From the NCBI GenBank assembly GCA_002840245.1, contig PHAA01000002.1:1-64000 (forward strand): 64,000 bases of DNA, read 5' to 3'. Made by a program: the position numbers and the translations under genes. Within the stretch, counting starts at the first letter, position 1. Every line of letters begins with the position of its first letter. The notes under the pieces were generated by a model. The model ran no database searches and had not been told where the DNA came from. It saw nothing but the letters and a program-made list of their open reading frames with translations. Source of the DNA: Firmicutes bacterium HGW-Firmicutes-15 (GTDB lineage: Bacteria; Bacillota; Syntrophomonadia; Syntrophomonadales; Syntrophomonadaceae). This document shows, one piece after another, positions 4,084-48,758 of this stretch.

Positions 4084-4605
4084 ATGATTAATTTGCTATA
4101 CCCACGGATCTATGTTGATAGTTTACTTGATATTCCGAGAGACAAGCTTAGGGAAAGAAACATTAGCGCATTTATCATTGATCTAGACAATACTATAACG
4201 GAATGGAACAGTGACGAACTACGTTCAGAGGTGGACGATTGGTTCGTACTAATCAAGTCGGAAGGTTTCAAAGCCTGCATTTTATCAAATAATGGTGAGC
4301 AAAGGATCAAAAGGGTAGCTGATAGGCTGGGTATACCCTTTATCCATCGAGCTGGTAAACCCCGGCGCCGTTCTTTTTTTAGTGCCGTTGTTCTTTTGGG
4401 GGTCAGTGCTAATGAAGTAGCAGTTGTTGGAGATCAGATATTTACTGATGTTTTAGGAGGAAACCGGGCTGGCCTGTTTACAATCTTGGTAAAACCTCTA
4501 GCCAGGAGAGAGTTTTTTGGTACCAAAATTAACCGTACACTTGAGTTGTTTGTTTTACGCTATTTGCTTAGGAAGGTTACGGGAAAGGATGGGTTCGTAA
4601 AATGA
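4084..4605 (+). CDS. yqeG: YqeG family HAD-IIIA phosphatase
   Basis: 173 residues. HAD motif I is IIDLDNTITEW (residues 32-42) with the two catalytic aspartates, motif II is the SNN near residue 69, and motif IV is VVGDQIFTDVLGGNRAG. YqeG proteins are close relatives of phosphatidylglycerophosphate phosphatases such as GEP4 and normally sit beside aroE, yqeH or nadD in Firmicutes. The cytosolic phosphatase function is well supported, the substrate is not. It overlaps aroE by four bases (ATGA), a sign of translational coupling. Confidence 0.85.
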   Translation: MINLLYPRIYVDSLLDIPRDKLRERNISAFIIDLDNTITEWNSDELRSEVDDWFVLIKSEGFKACILSNNGEQRIKRVADRLGIPFIHRAGKPRRRSFFSAVVLLGVSANEVAVVGDQIFTDVLGGNRAGLFTILVKPLARREFFGTKINRTLELFVLRYLLRKVTGKDGFVK

Positions 4606-5462
4606 TAATAAATAATGATACAATACTGATGGGGGTGATTGGGAACCCCATTGGGCACACATTATCGCCCCTTATGCATAACCGCGCCATTGAAAGGCTG
4701 GGCCTAAATTATGTATACCTGCCATTTGAGGTTGCTCCTGAGAGGCTGGGAGACGCTGTAGCTGCCGTGCGAGCTTTGAACTTGCGGGGTATAAATGTTA
4801 CTGTACCCTTTAAGGAAGCGGTTATCCCATATTTGGATGATATATCGGCGGAAGCTAGGGCTTGTGGAGCGGTCAACCTTATTAAAAATGAACATGGCCG
4901 CTTAACCGGTTATAATACGGACGGCAAAGGTTTCCGGGCTAGCTTGGTGGATGAGGGGGTCTCCTATATAAAAAGAGCTCTGTTTATTGGGGCAGGGGGA
5001 GCGGCTCGATCGCTGGCGTATGAATTGGCCATATCTGGAGTCAACAGAATGGATTTTTTAGATATTTACCTGGATAAGGCTCAAGATATTGCTCGTTTTG
5101 TTGGTCAGTTCCACAATTGCGTGGCTACGGGCCATGGGATGAGTGAGGAATTGTTTTCAGATCTAAGCCAGGAGGCTGACCTGATTATAAATTGTACTCC
5201 AATGGGTATGTTCCCTCATGTTGAAAGTGTACCGGTTAGCTCTTTGCATAAGGTGTCACACAATACGGTGGTATATGATCTGGTGTACAACCCATTCACT
5301 ACCCGTTTTATTGCTATGGCTCGGGCAAGACATCTTAAAACCATTAATGGTTTATCTATGCTGGTTCACCAAGGGGCGCTTGCTCTTGAAATTCTGACTG
5401 GAGCCAAACCGCCAATTGGTTTTATGAAGGAAGTGGTTCTTAATTATTATAAGAAACAATAA
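4602..5462 (+). CDS. aroE: Shikimate 5-dehydrogenase
   Basis: 286 residues. The substrate-binding N-terminus shows IGNPIGHTLSPLMHN and the catalytic lysine lies in GINVTVPFKEAV; TDGKGF supplies the aspartate. The Rossmann loop is FIGAGGAARSLAYEL and the C-terminus has the usual NGLSMLVHQGALALE. It reduces 3-dehydroshikimate to shikimate with NADPH in aromatic amino acid synthesis, and aroC, aroK and aroQ lie nearby. ATG 4602 overlaps the yqeG stop. The last 20 bases overlap the apparent translational start region of a minor pilin. Confidence 0.95.
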   Translation: MIINNDTILMGVIGNPIGHTLSPLMHNRAIERLGLNYVYLPFEVAPERLGDAVAAVRALNLRGINVTVPFKEAVIPYLDDISAEARACGAVNLIKNEHGRLTGYNTDGKGFRASLVDEGVSYIKRALFIGAGGAARSLAYELAISGVNRMDFLDIYLDKAQDIARFVGQFHNCVATGHGMSEELFSDLSQEADLIINCTPMGMFPHVESVPVSSLHKVSHNTVVYDLVYNPFTTRFIAMARARHLKTINGLSMLVHQGALALEILTGAKPPIGFMKEVVLNYYKKQ

Positions 5463-5907
5463 AGGATTTACTTTATTGGAATTGTTGGCGGTCATGGCTT
5501 TGATGGGGATTGTATTGTCATTGGGTACACCTCAGTTTTCCAAAATCCTGGCGTCAGTTAGACTTAATGCGGATGCACAGAAAATGGCATCTGTGCTTAA
5601 GTTGGCCCGTCAGGAAGCGATAAGCACTGGTCGGCCACGGACAGTAGTATTTTATCCGAATAATGCAAAATATAAGATAATCGGGGAGTCAACCTGTTTT
5701 CTCAATCCGGGGATAAATTTTGTGGGTGCTACTAATTTCCCTGAAAATGCAGAGTCATTGCCTTTCTGCGGTTTTGCAGCTTCTGGGGTGCCCAGTTCCG
5801 GGGGAACAGTTGTTTTAGGGAACAGCAATAGTCGGCGATATGTTATTGTTAATCCTGCAGCTGGGCGCATCAGGGTGTCAGAAAGCCCACCAGAAAATTG
5901 GAATTAG
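5443..5907 (+). CDS. GspH/FimT-like minor pilin with apparent AUU start
   Basis: The frame from 5464 reads [17 protein letters not shown], an ideal prepilin-peptidase site (cleavage after Gly) and pilin helix, followed by a GspH/FimT-like globular domain of about 125 residues. No ATG, GTG or TTG exists between the in-frame stop at 5425-5427 and this motif. The best start is ATT 5443, seven bases after AAGGAAG (5427-5433 region); it gives the leader IIIRNNKG, a normal class III leader. The following TTG at 5476 would destroy the motif. The start region lies inside the aroE 3' end, so coupling to aroE translation is likely. It is a lone pilin gene about 4 kb from the main pilus operon. Family strong, start inferred. 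Confidence 0.75.
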
Positions 5908-13217: not shown

Positions 13218-13595
13218 ATGATAAAAGAAATTGTGAAGAGAAAAGAGAATCAGAAGGGTTTTACGCTTTTGGAACTAATAATTGTTATGGCAATACTTAC
13301 GGTCCTGGCGGCTATTGCAATTCCGAAGTATACAGGAGTACTAGATGATTCAAAAAAGAAAGCAAATATAGCCAATATCAAAATGATTGAAGAAGCTGCT
13401 GATTTATATATGACAAATGAGGTGGATAACACTGCTTTGAAAACCGGGGATATTTCTACCAGTACTCATACGTTACTAGATAAAAAATATTTAAAAGCCA
13501 TACCTAAAGATCCCAAAAATAATGATGTTTATACGATTACGAGAACTGGAGATCAAATTGTTGTTACTCCAAAAGTGACTGCGGGATATAACTGA
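13218..13595 (+). CDS. pilA: Type IV major pilin
   Basis: 125 residues. A 13-residue basic leader ends in KG, then FTLLELIIVMAILTVLAAIAIPKY, the classic class III signal with Glu5, and a small soluble domain rich in lysine, aspartate and threonine. The absence of cysteines and the short globular domain match monoderm pilins. ATG 13218 follows GGGGGAGG. Its position directly after pilC and its being the simplest pilin here suggest it is the major subunit. It is longer than the 61-residue conductive Geobacter pilin and has few aromatics, so I do not infer conductivity. Confidence 0.92.
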   Translation: MIKEIVKRKENQKGFTLLELIIVMAILTVLAAIAIPKYTGVLDDSKKKANIANIKMIEEAADLYMTNEVDNTALKTGDISTSTHTLLDKKYLKAIPKDPKNNDVYTITRTGDQIVVTPKVTAGYN

Positions 13596-14515: not shown

Positions 14516-14932
14516 ATGTCCTGGCATATAAAATGGATTAATAATGAAACCGGTCTAACCCTAATCGAAGTGCTGGCATCGCTTGTTTTACTGTCCCTAA
14601 TGATAGTTAGTATTCTGGCTGGTTTTACCCCGGCAGCAAGCTGGATTAGTAAAGCCCGACGGGAAACGACAGCCAGTAATTATGCCACGGCAATTCTGGA
14701 AGATCTGCGATCTGATCGGAGCAAAATTGATAACAGCAATGCAGGAAAGACAGCTCAGGATCTGTTTCCTTCTTATGGATACCCATGGGCTGGAATGAAG
14801 GATAAGGTTACGCGTTTGGAAAGGCAGAACGCTCCATTTAACAACCTTTATGATATTACGGTGACAATAAGCTGGTTGGAGGGAAATGAGACGCGAAGCT
14901 TAAAAATGAGCACTATGATAAAGAAGAACTAG
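14516..14932 (+). CDS. Minor pilin, PilV/GspI-like
   Basis: 138 residues. The leader ends in ETG, followed by LTLIEVLASLVLLSLMIVSIL, a prepilin-peptidase site and pilin helix. The short C-terminal domain (ITVTISWLEG near the end) is typical of PilV/GspI minor subunits. It is the first of three minor pilins after pilD, three bases before the next gene region, and probably part of the tip complex that primes pilus assembly. Confidence 0.8.
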   Translation: MSWHIKWINNETGLTLIEVLASLVLLSLMIVSILAGFTPAASWISKARRETTASNYATAILEDLRSDRSKIDNSNAGKTAQDLFPSYGYPWAGMKDKVTRLERQNAPFNNLYDITVTISWLEGNETRSLKMSTMIKKN

Positions 14933-14943
14933 AGGTGCCGGGT

Positions 14944-15411
14944 ATGGGTGGGAGAGGGCGAGATAGAGGAAGCACTTTGGCGGAGATGCTGGTAGCTATG
15001 GCCTTAGCATCATTGATTTTGAGCGGTCTGATGAGCATCTACTGGACAGGCAGCAATGCTTTCCAAAGGCTGTCTTCAACTTCCGACGCTCAGTATGCAG
15101 TTCGCAGCGCTACGCAGAAGATGATGGAGGACATCCGAGGTGCATCGGCTGTGTCAATAGAAGAAGGTGGAGCTAAACTAATCTTGCTTACTGCCGCTGG
15201 GGAAGCAGTCAATTATTATGTGGCAAATAATCAACTTTATCGTGATGGAACTGCTAAAGTGCCCATCGCTGAAAATATAAGCGGCCTGAGTTTTAGTGGG
15301 AGTTCCAGCTTGGTGAAAATAACTGCGGATGCAACGGTAAATGGCAGAACTTATCAACTGATCAGCAGCATTAGTCCTCGTCTTGCCAGTTTGGCAGGAG
15401 AGGATAAATAG
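14944..15411 (+). CDS. Minor pilin, PilW/GspJ-like
   Basis: 155 residues from ATG 14944, set by AGAGGTG at 14931-14937; a GTG at 14935 overlaps that site and is less likely. The leader is basic (GGRGRDRG) and precedes STLAEMLVAMALASLILSGL with the conserved glutamate at position 5 of the mature form. A first residue serine in place of phenylalanine is unusual but tolerated in minor pilins. The globular domain (VRSATQKMMEDIRGA) resembles PilW/GspJ. Confidence 0.78.
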   Translation: MGGRGRDRGSTLAEMLVAMALASLILSGLMSIYWTGSNAFQRLSSTSDAQYAVRSATQKMMEDIRGASAVSIEEGGAKLILLTAAGEAVNYYVANNQLYRDGTAKVPIAENISGLSFSGSSSLVKITADATVNGRTYQLISSISPRLASLAGEDK

Positions 15412-15425
15412 GGGAGGGGGGCGCC

Positions 15426-15971
15426 ATTTGTACCCAAAAAGATAAGCTGATTTCTGAAAAGGGCAGCCTTATGCCAATGATATTGATTATGTTAATGATA
15501 ATAAGCCTGCTAGGGGCTGCTGCTATCGAGGCGGGGAGCATGGAGTTAAAGATTAGCCATTATGAGTTTAGGGTTCAACAAGCCCAGCAGGCTGCTGATG
15601 CAGGAGTGGACTGGGGTGCAGAGAGGGTCTATTTGCAACTGGTAAATAGACGGGATGACCCTGCTCTCCCTGTGTCAATAGATTTGTCGCCAGATATCAA
15701 CCCGCAAAGAATTGGGCCAGATTTAAGCGATTCCCTTGCACCGAATTTTGTCATTAGAGACTGGCAAGCTAGTAGGGTCTCCACTGCCACATCAAATCCC
15801 GCTGTATATAAATTAATTTCAACAGGAAATTTCGGGAGTGCCTATAAAAAAATTGCGGTGGAAATAAGCTATAGGTATGAGGGGGGTGCTATCGACCCGA
15901 TAACTGGTCACTTTCAGGAACGAGACTATTCCGGTAACAGGGGCGTTATTAGTTCCTACATGGTTCCATGA
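15426..15971 (+). CDS. Minor pilin-like protein, PilX/GspK-like, apparent AUU start
   Basis: The frame carries EKGSLMPMILIMLMIISLLGAA, matching the PilX leader pattern (RG-AAL-helix, no Glu5), then IEAGSMELKISHYEFRVQQAQQAADAGVDWG, the typical PilX/GspK shaft continuation. The first canonical codon, ATG 15471, would delete the leader. Upstream in frame the only candidates are ATT 15426 (four bases after GGGGAGGGGGG at 15411-15421), CTG 15447 and ATT 15450. I chose ATT 15426. The length would be 181 residues. This is the second pilin in the window needing a non-standard start. Confidence 0.7.
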   Translation: MCTQKDKLISEKGSLMPMILIMLMIISLLGAAAIEAGSMELKISHYEFRVQQAQQAADAGVDWGAERVYLQLVNRRDDPALPVSIDLSPDINPQRIGPDLSDSLAPNFVIRDWQASRVSTATSNPAVYKLISTGNFGSAYKKIAVEISYRYEGGAIDPITGHFQERDYSGNRGVISSYMVP

Positions 15972-24895: not shown

Positions 24896-25315
24896 CTGAG
24901 AGATATTTCGGAGAAGGTTAGTTATCTACAAGGTTTGAGCGAGGGGTTGAATATTACCGGGGGGAGCCCCCAGGGAAAAATCATATCCGGGATACTGAAT
25001 GTGTTAAACGAGATCGCGGATGAGATTAGTGGTATCCAGACCAAATTTGATGAGATGCAAGAATATATTGAAAGCGTCGATGATGATTTGCTGGACTTGG
25101 AAGAAAGCGTACTAGATGATGATTATATGGAACTTGAATGCCGTAATTGCGGAGAACAACTCTATATTGAATCGGATATTATGGATGACGAAGATGTCAT
25201 CGAAGTTACCTGCCCTCGCTGCAATGAGGTGATTTTCATCAATGATGGTTCCTTTGATCACGAGCATATTTCAGTAGATGAAGAGTTTGAAGTTGGGGAA
25301 TCTCGCCCTAGTTGA
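24896..25315 (+). CDS. CD1247-like small acidic zinc-ribbon protein, apparent CUG start
   Basis: 139 residues if begun at CTG 24896, which lies seven bases after a perfect AAGGAGGG (24881-24888). This start restores the family N-terminus (RDISEKVSYLQGLSEGLNI), which a TTG at 24935 would cut. A very acidic coiled segment (residues 35-75) is followed by a zinc ribbon with CRNC and CPRC. The family is found next to efp and spoIIIA in Clostridia; its function is unknown. A strong terminator follows. Confidence 0.75.
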   Translation: MRDISEKVSYLQGLSEGLNITGGSPQGKIISGILNVLNEIADEISGIQTKFDEMQEYIESVDDDLLDLEESVLDDDYMELECRNCGEQLYIESDIMDDEDVIEVTCPRCNEVIFINDGSFDHEHISVDEEFEVGESRPS

Positions 25316-48147: not shown

Positions 48148-48745
48148 TAGATTATTACTTGCAAAAGGTTGCAGTATTCTAGTCAACCCTATCAATTTTG
48201 AGGACGGGCCTAAAAATCCGTCAAGGGCACAGCGATGAAGCTTCTGGTAGCGGCTTCTGACGCCCAGTTGGGGGTCGTTGCTGGGAGTTAAGGGTGATGG
48301 GGCAATCCGCAATGGCATGCGGGCATGACCCCACATCCATGGAGGCTCAGGTTTATCCCAAGAGGGTAAACTTGAGAAAACCTGCATTCCGGTTAAAACT
48401 GGGTGTAGTGTAGCCTGCCTTGAGTGGCTACAGCGGATAAGCGTTCAGTGATGATAAATGCTTAGGCCAAAGCATTATCATCTGCTTTGAAATTGTATGC
48501 TGCAAAAGAGGCTAGAGATTGATGTGGGTTGTTGAGGAAAACTCCTAGACTGTGTGCGCTATGGCATGGTTTATCAAGGATTAAAGTGTGTACTTAGTGG
48601 TAATCCAGCCCCATGTTCGGCGACGACATGTAGCAGGCATAAAGGGAAACCGCCCATCTGGTAACAAATGGGAGACCTGCGGGGAAAACCTGCTGGACCT
48701 ATGTCACAACGTTTACTCGATAAACTACCTTTTGTTTTATCATTA
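48148..48745 (+). ncRNA. ole: OLE RNA (ornate, large, extremophilic)
   Basis: A roughly 600-nt non-coding, GC-richer segment just before oapA and the dxs-tlyA-nadK-argR block, which is the defining OLE context in Firmicutes. It is dense in helices: GACGG/CCGTC (48203-48222), TGGGG/CCCCA enclosing CCGC/GCGG (48298-48333), GTTTA-CCC-aaga-GGG-TAAAC (48351-48371) and a 14-bp stem 48450-48482. OLE RNA forms membrane ribonucleoprotein with OapA and other proteins and is linked to cold, alcohol and magnesium stress. No coding frame explains the region. Exact ends are estimated from the promoter and the oapA start. Confidence 0.85.
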
Positions 48746-48758
48746 TTAATAATGGAGG

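What the first reader, a model, noticed from the sequence alone, without database searches (positions are those of the whole stretch)
15411..15480. Second pilin (PilX-like) also appears to start at AUU
The leader EKGSLMPM lies upstream of the first ATG (15471). The only well-placed start is ATT 15426, directly behind GGGGAGGGGGG. Two independent pilin genes with AUU starts in one window hint at a deliberate low-level translation strategy for minor pilins in this lineage.
Basis: partly seen in the sequence, partly recalled or inferred. Interest (0 to 1): 0.55.

Follow-up and report, generated by a model that had tools for sequence, protein, structure and literature searches.

The report
Minor pilin genes starting at AUU
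In a bacterium related to Syntrophomonas, genes for minor proteins of a surface filament begin with the rare start codon AUU (AUC in some relatives) instead of AUG, and the same oddity recurs in related species, so it is probably a real way of keeping these proteins scarce rather than a sequencing error.

Summary
The PilX gene (PF14341) has no in-frame ATG/GTG/TTG before its prepilin-peptidase glycine at 15462; ATT 15426 follows GGGGAGGGGGG at normal spacing. Sequencing error is ruled out: two congeners (about 65% protein identity) also lack a canonical start and carry ATT, one at the identical place. The other 26 of 29 PilX homologues have canonical starts. The second AUU pilin is the GspH-like gene at 5443, overlapping aroE: of 33 aroE-pilin junctions in the family, 13 have AUC/AUU and no canonical start at exactly the codon where 11 have AUG/GUG. 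A GspJ-like pilin starts at ATT in one congener where another has TTG. Of 118 orthologue pairs compared with one congener, only these two pilins lack a canonical start in both genomes. Most AUU/AUC sites have strong Shine-Dalgarno sequences, and infC of the genus appears to start at AUC or AUA. Weak, IF3-discriminated initiation limiting minor-pilin dose is the likeliest function, but no expression data exist; translational coupling, or overlap constraint from aroE for GspH, could also explain tolerance of weak starts.

The parts
15411..15421 (+). Shine-Dalgarno sequence GGGGAGGGGGG of the PilX gene (GGAGG 15413-15417); its first base is the last base of the preceding gene's stop TAG
   Evidence: duplex with the anti-SD -11.7 kcal/mol, in the strongest 3% of 1500 random window positions
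15426..15428 (+). AUU start codon of the PilX-like minor pilin gene
   Evidence: only ATN codon with SD spacing; identical position in G006, ATT also in G001
15426..15971 (+). PilX-like (GspK-position) minor pilin, 181 aa
   Evidence: PF14341 PilX_N 36.5 bits, cut-off 25.5; GspK weak hit, far under its cut-off
15462..15464 (+). Gly(-1) codon of the prepilin peptidase site (SEKG|SLMPM)
   Evidence: invariant in the alignment of ten homologues
5427..5436 (+). AAGGAAGTGG, SD-like sequence of the GspH gene, inside the aroE coding region (MKEVV)
   Evidence: -12.1 kcal/mol; similar in most of 33 junctions
5443..5445 (+). AUU start codon (followed by a second ATT at 5446) of the GspH/FimT-like minor pilin
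   Evidence: ATT ATT in G006 and G001, ATC in G003, ATG in G002 and G005 at the homologous codon
5443..5907 (+). GspH/FimT/ComGD-like minor pilin; 5' end overlaps aroE by 20 bases
   Evidence: TIGR02532 prepilin domain 31.1 bits (cut-off 16.3); ComGD, GspH, XpsH below their cut-offs
4602..5462 (+). aroE (name given from the protein sequence), whose 3' end carries the start region of the GspH gene
   Evidence: name recalled from sequence features, not from a family scan
14935..15411 (+). GspJ/PilW-position minor pilin (GTG 14935 or, with better SD, ATG 14944)
   Evidence: N_methyl 24.3 bits; ComGF weak; SD; the homologue in G005 starts at ATT
14516..14932 (+). GspI/PilV-position minor pilin, ATG start
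   Evidence: TIGR02523 PilV 34.1 bits, below cut-off 52.2
13218..13595 (+). major pilin (ComGC/GspG-like), ATG start with strong SD
   Evidence: N_methyl 39.2 bits; GspG and ComGC hits below cut-off; SD -12.5

Best explanation
The PilX gene is translated from AUU 15426. A strong Shine-Dalgarno sequence places the 30S subunit on a codon that IF3 discriminates against, so that the minor pilin is made at a fraction of the rate that AUG would give, while the major pilin of the same cluster has AUG. The same holds for the GspH-like pilin at AUU 5443. Shown by comparison: the missing canonical starts, their recurrence in relatives, the position of the AUH codon, the SD. Inferred: initiation with fMet at AUU, the low rate, the IF3 dependence and the benefit (scarce minor pilins against many major ones).
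For: No ATG/GTG/TTG before Gly(-1) in three species, ATT in all three; identical ATT position in G000 and G006 while flanking bases differ. GspH: 13 of 33 aroE-pilin junctions have AUC/AUU and no canonical start, all at the codon that is AUG or GUG in 11 others (some counted by hand from printed sequence). GspJ of G005 has ATT where G002 has TTG, both six codons before the glycine. Control: 118 G000/G001 orthologue pairs tested, four of them minor pilins; 2 of 4 pilins against 0 of 114 others lack a canonical start in both (Fisher p 0.0009, chosen after the fact). SD energies of the three PilX and the GspJ AUU sites are -11.5 to -13.1. infC appears to start at ATC (ATA in G003) in the genus. 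In S. aureus AUU/AUA starts with extended SD gave about 10% of AUG (PMC13009471, passages); IF3 represses such starts (PMC5472188, passages).
Against: No expression, ribosome-profiling or proteome data. One of the 14 aroE-linked pilins without a canonical start, that of G023, has TTC at the codon and no AUN/NUG codon in its leader, so either that gene is broken or mis-assembled there, or another mechanism can start it. Two GspH sites (G003, G012) have only moderate SD (-7.8). Most PilX homologues (26 of 29) use canonical starts, so AUU is not needed for a minor pilin. AUY and NUG changed into each other on the tree.
Confidence: 0.68

Rival explanations
1. The pilins are translated from AUU, but the weak codon has no regulatory purpose. 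Ribosomes that finish the preceding gene (aroE, GspJ/PilW) reinitiate nearby, coupling makes the start codon identity matter little, and AUU/AUC drifted in. For GspH the codon is set largely by the aroE C-terminus (residue pairs such as N-Q or N-Y give ATC/ATT in the pilin frame).
For: ATT 15426 lies 15 bases behind the last base of the preceding gene's stop; GspH starts inside aroE in most junctions; AUY/NUG switch on the tree; in a sister family two aroE-linked pilins have ATT/ATC at the same codon, counted by hand, although an ATG follows further down (L362, L363).
Against: PilX does not overlap a coding gene, yet keeps ATT at the identical place in two species; the PilX and GspJ AUU sites have strong SD; 0 of 114 other orthologue pairs drifted this way in both genomes.
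Confidence: 0.22
2. Translation of the pilin frame comes from a +1 frameshift or read-through out of the preceding gene, giving a fusion that the prepilin peptidase cuts behind the glycine; no start codon is needed.
For: G023 has no AUN/NUG codon in the leader at all; the pilin frame of GspH is +1 to aroE in nearly all junctions printed.
Against: AUG/GUG sits at the same codon in 11 of 33 junctions; in the PilX case the frame is closed by TAA 15405 directly before the open stretch; SD spacing is kept.
Confidence: 0.04
3. Translation starts at ATG 15471 and the leader is not translated (or the gene is dead).
For: ATG 15471 is the first canonical start of the frame.
Against: It would remove the cleavage glycine and leader that homologues keep; G001 has ACT there; weak SD; the frame is open and 63-65% identical to G001 over its length.
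Confidence: 0.04

Closest known systems
infC (IF3) AUU/AUC/AUA start, autoregulated
   Same: Non-canonical AUN start behind a strong SD, conserved between species; infC of this genus itself appears to start at ATC or ATA.
   Different: infC is autoregulation of the discriminating factor; the pilins would be its targets. No IF3 test here.
cvfC1 (AUU) and ccpN (AUA) of Staphylococcus, ccpN also in Bacillus subtilis (PMC13009471, passages read)
   Same: Conserved non-canonical start with extended SD in a Gram-positive; about 10% of AUG synthesis measured there.
   Different: Other functions; there shown by Ribo-Ret and reporters, here by comparison only; here the codon also recurs in several genes of one machine.
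sigR (GUC) of Streptomyces, repressed by IF3 (PMC5472188, passages read)
   Same: A non-canonical start that sets the ratio of two partner proteins.
   Different: GUC, one gene, actinobacteria; ratio effect shown there, inferred here.
Minor pilin sets FimU-PilV-PilW-PilX and GspH-I-J-K (recalled)
   Same: Similar gene set and N-terminal features; PilX_N over its Pfam cut-off.
   Different: Only start codon usage is unusual; the equivalog models of NCBIfam stay below cut-off.

Membership tests
Genes with a conserved non-canonical (AUH) start codon | No in-frame ATG/GTG/TTG between the upstream stop and the conserved N-terminus | tested here: met
   PilX in 3 species; GspH in 14 of 33 junctions
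Genes with a conserved non-canonical (AUH) start codon | AUH codon at SD distance and conserved in position between species | tested here: met
   PilX identical in G000 and G006, shifted in G001; GspH same codon in 13 genomes
Genes with a conserved non-canonical (AUH) start codon | Canonical start at the homologous codon in relatives | tested here: met
   GspH: ATG or GTG in 11 of 33 junctions; GspJ: TTG in G002, ATT in G005. For PilX the ATG of G002, G004 and G005 is one or two codons off, not the same codon
Genes with a conserved non-canonical (AUH) start codon | Initiation at the codon, reduced yield, IF3 dependence | not testable with these tools
   needs ribosome profiling, reporters, IF3 mutants
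PilX-like minor pilin (PF14341) | PilX_N profile over gathering score | tested here: met
   36.5 bits against 25.5
PilX-like minor pilin (PF14341) | Gly(-1) followed by a hydrophobic helix, in a type IV pilus cluster | tested here: met
   PilM, PilN and PilO over their cut-offs behind it
GspK (NF037980) | Score over NCBIfam cut-off | tested here: not met
   14.8 bits against 130

The most novel reading that the evidence does not exclude
Minor pilins of the Syntrophomonas family form a small set of genes whose dose is set by IF3-discriminated AUU/AUC starts: the codon has been taken up repeatedly in different pilin genes (GspH, GspJ, PilX), so pilus initiation would follow the IF3 level and hence the growth state of these slow syntrophs.
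Probability: 0.2. Interest if true: 0.72.

Novelty: new member of a known kind. Interest (0 to 1): 0.5.

Why it matters
Few bacterial genes with conserved starts other than AUG/GUG/UUG are documented; here a functional class, minor pilins, shows it in several genes and, for the aroE-linked one, in seven genera. Gene finders that allow only ATG/GTG/TTG must miss these starts or cut off the leader and cleavage site, so minor pilins in this family may be missed or truncated. It also offers a clean test of whether start codon choice sets the ratio of minor to major pilins.

Tried and rejected
Sequencing or assembly error at ATT 15426: rejected, since ATT recurs in two other genomes. Start at ATG 15471, CTG 15447 or ATT 15450: rejected on homology and SD. 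A TTG start at 15428: out of frame, stops at once. General laxity of start codons in this genome: not supported by 118 orthologue pairs; the verdict is by eye for the pairs that one search printed with upstream similarity. I dropped one antisense frame among them (W_144), and one gene has CTG in G000 but TTG in G001. One further pair (L226_29/L248_14, NUDIX-like by sequence) keeps a 13-column similar stretch before its first ATG that I did not explain. RNA folds around the PilX start: nothing beyond shuffles. In one search five PilX-like rows print no canonical start; for G016 and G003 the script took the wrong glycine (one search shows GTG and ATG), leaving three; three rows without a recognised glycine were dropped. 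The first orthologue scan flagged 103 of 268 pairs, mostly antisense frames and SD regions as far as its cut output showed; it was replaced.

Literature: 'AUU start codon' with 'pilin' found 0 papers; minor pilin + start codon + ATT found 50, 15 listed, none about start codons of pilins by title. Only listings were seen, except for passages of PMC13009471 and PMC5472188.

Full report
What is there. The window is part of contig C84 of a 3.47-Mb genome; the closest loci found in genome contigs belong to MAGs named Syntrophomonas sp.. A type IV pilus cluster runs from 10154 to about 18411: PilB- and PilC-like proteins (by sequence), major pilin 13218, prepilin peptidase 13731 (by sequence), minor pilins 14516 and 14935, the PilX-like gene of this finding, then PilM, PilN and PilO, all three over their Pfam cut-offs. 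A fourth minor pilin, GspH/ComGD-like, lies apart at 5443-5907 with its 5' end inside aroE.

The PilX start. The frame opens at 15408 behind TAA 15405. Up to the cleavage glycine at 15462 there is no ATG, GTG or TTG. ATT 15426 stands 8 bases behind GGAGG within GGGGAGGGGGG. Of 61 genomes searched, 29 gave a PilX match. In 26 of these 29 an ATG, GTG or TTG lies in frame before the glycine; the three without are the window genome, G001 and G006, all of the same genus, all with ATT. G006 has GCCATTT at the identical place behind AGGAGGT, and there the two alternative codons of the window (CTG 15447, ATT 15450) are CGA and AGT. In G001 the ATT lies closer to the glycine, behind GGAGGAGG. A profile search of the regions fetched later scored 38 PilX-like N-termini and added no further case.

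The second and third pilins. The GspH-like gene has ATT ATT at 5443/5446 and no canonical start; G006 (84% identical) and G001 (71%) have ATT ATT at the same place, G003 has ATC, and G002 and G005 have ATG. A census of prepilin N-termini in 44 genomes of the family found 163, of which 15 have no canonical start before the glycine. Fourteen of the 15 are this aroE-linked pilin; the fifteenth is the GspJ-like pilin of G005, with ATT six codons before the glycine where G002 has TTG. The census used a motif and a hydrophobicity rule, so it is not complete, and PilX was counted apart.

The junctions. In 33 genomes the aroE end and the pilin start could be read together (one search stopped on an error after G030 and the rest is, with the codon counted by hand). 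Counted from the TGA that overlaps the ATG of the aroE motif MKEVV, the sixth codon is ATT or ATC with no canonical start in 13 genomes, ATG in 8, GTG in 3 and TTC in 1 (G023); the other 8 are arranged differently (two of them, G027 and G065, have ATT there and TTG two codons earlier). That AUG/GUG and AUC/AUU replace each other at one fixed place is the strongest evidence that the AUY codon is the start. On an AroE tree without the overlapping C-terminus, AUY (13 rows) against NUG (15 rows) needs five changes, at least three of them forced by well supported branches.

Is it common in this genome? From 726 kb of the window's genome and 640 kb of G001, 268 reciprocal best frames gave 127 non-overlapping pairs, of which 118 could be tested at the N-terminus. 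Among the pairs that one search printed with similarity upstream of the first canonical start, only GspH and PilX have no plausible canonical start in both genomes; the rest are SD regions, overlapping genes, one antisense frame, one unexplained case, and one gene with CTG in the window genome and TTG in G001 and G006. Four of the 118 pairs are minor pilins. Two of four against none of 114 gives p = 0.0009, with the reserve that the pilins drew attention first.

How it most likely works. The AUU/AUC sites mostly have a strong SD: -11.5 to -13.1 kcal/mol for the three PilX and the GspJ site, about -12 for GspH in four genomes, but only -7.8 in G003 and G012. Canonical starts tested in the window are mostly -8 to -10, with some stronger (major pilin -12.5, pilN -16.3) and some weaker. 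infC of the genus appears to start at ATC (ATA in G003) behind GGAGGTG. In S. aureus, AUU and AUA starts with extended SD gave roughly 10% of AUG synthesis (PMC13009471, passages), and IF3 represses the GUC start of sigR (PMC5472188, passages). FimU, PilV, PilW and PilX are described as less abundant than the major pilin in Pseudomonas (abstract of PMC8787478 in the listing). So a weak start that keeps minor pilins scarce is a natural reading. It is not shown. The rival that coupling to the preceding gene makes the codon unimportant remains open, and for GspH the aroE residues in part dictate the codon; in a sister family the same codon is ATT or ATC in two genomes although the pilin there has an ATG further on (counted by hand).

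Verdict. It is a known kind of thing (IF3-discriminated start codons); I found no report of it in minor pilins in the searches.

Noticed in passing
window 48150-48747 (+): OLE RNA (RF01071), 496.9 bits, full length; the stretch also showed as conserved antisense frames in G001, G002 and G005.
   Followed up: partly
window 24896-24898 (gene to 25315): A conserved small gene starts at CTG behind AAGGAGGGT where G001 and G006 have TTG at the same codon: a third start other than ATG/GTG/TTG in the window.
   Followed up: partly
infC loci L041-L047: infC in the seven genomes of the genus seems to start at ATC (ATA in G003) behind GGAGGTG; in some an ATT or TTG is also near.
   Followed up: partly
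window 16005 / 16053: pilM: ATG 16005 has no SD (-0.2 kcal/mol) while TTG 16053 has GGAGG at good spacing (-10.2); the real start is probably TTG 16053.
   Followed up: no
L349, aroE-pilin junction of G023: The aroE-linked pilin has TTC where relatives have ATG/ATC/ATT and no AUN/NUG codon in its leader; error, dead gene or another way of starting.
   Followed up: no
L226 around 12480: NUDIX-like gene (by sequence) with a 13-column stretch 77% alike in G001 before its first ATG, without canonical start.
   Followed up: no
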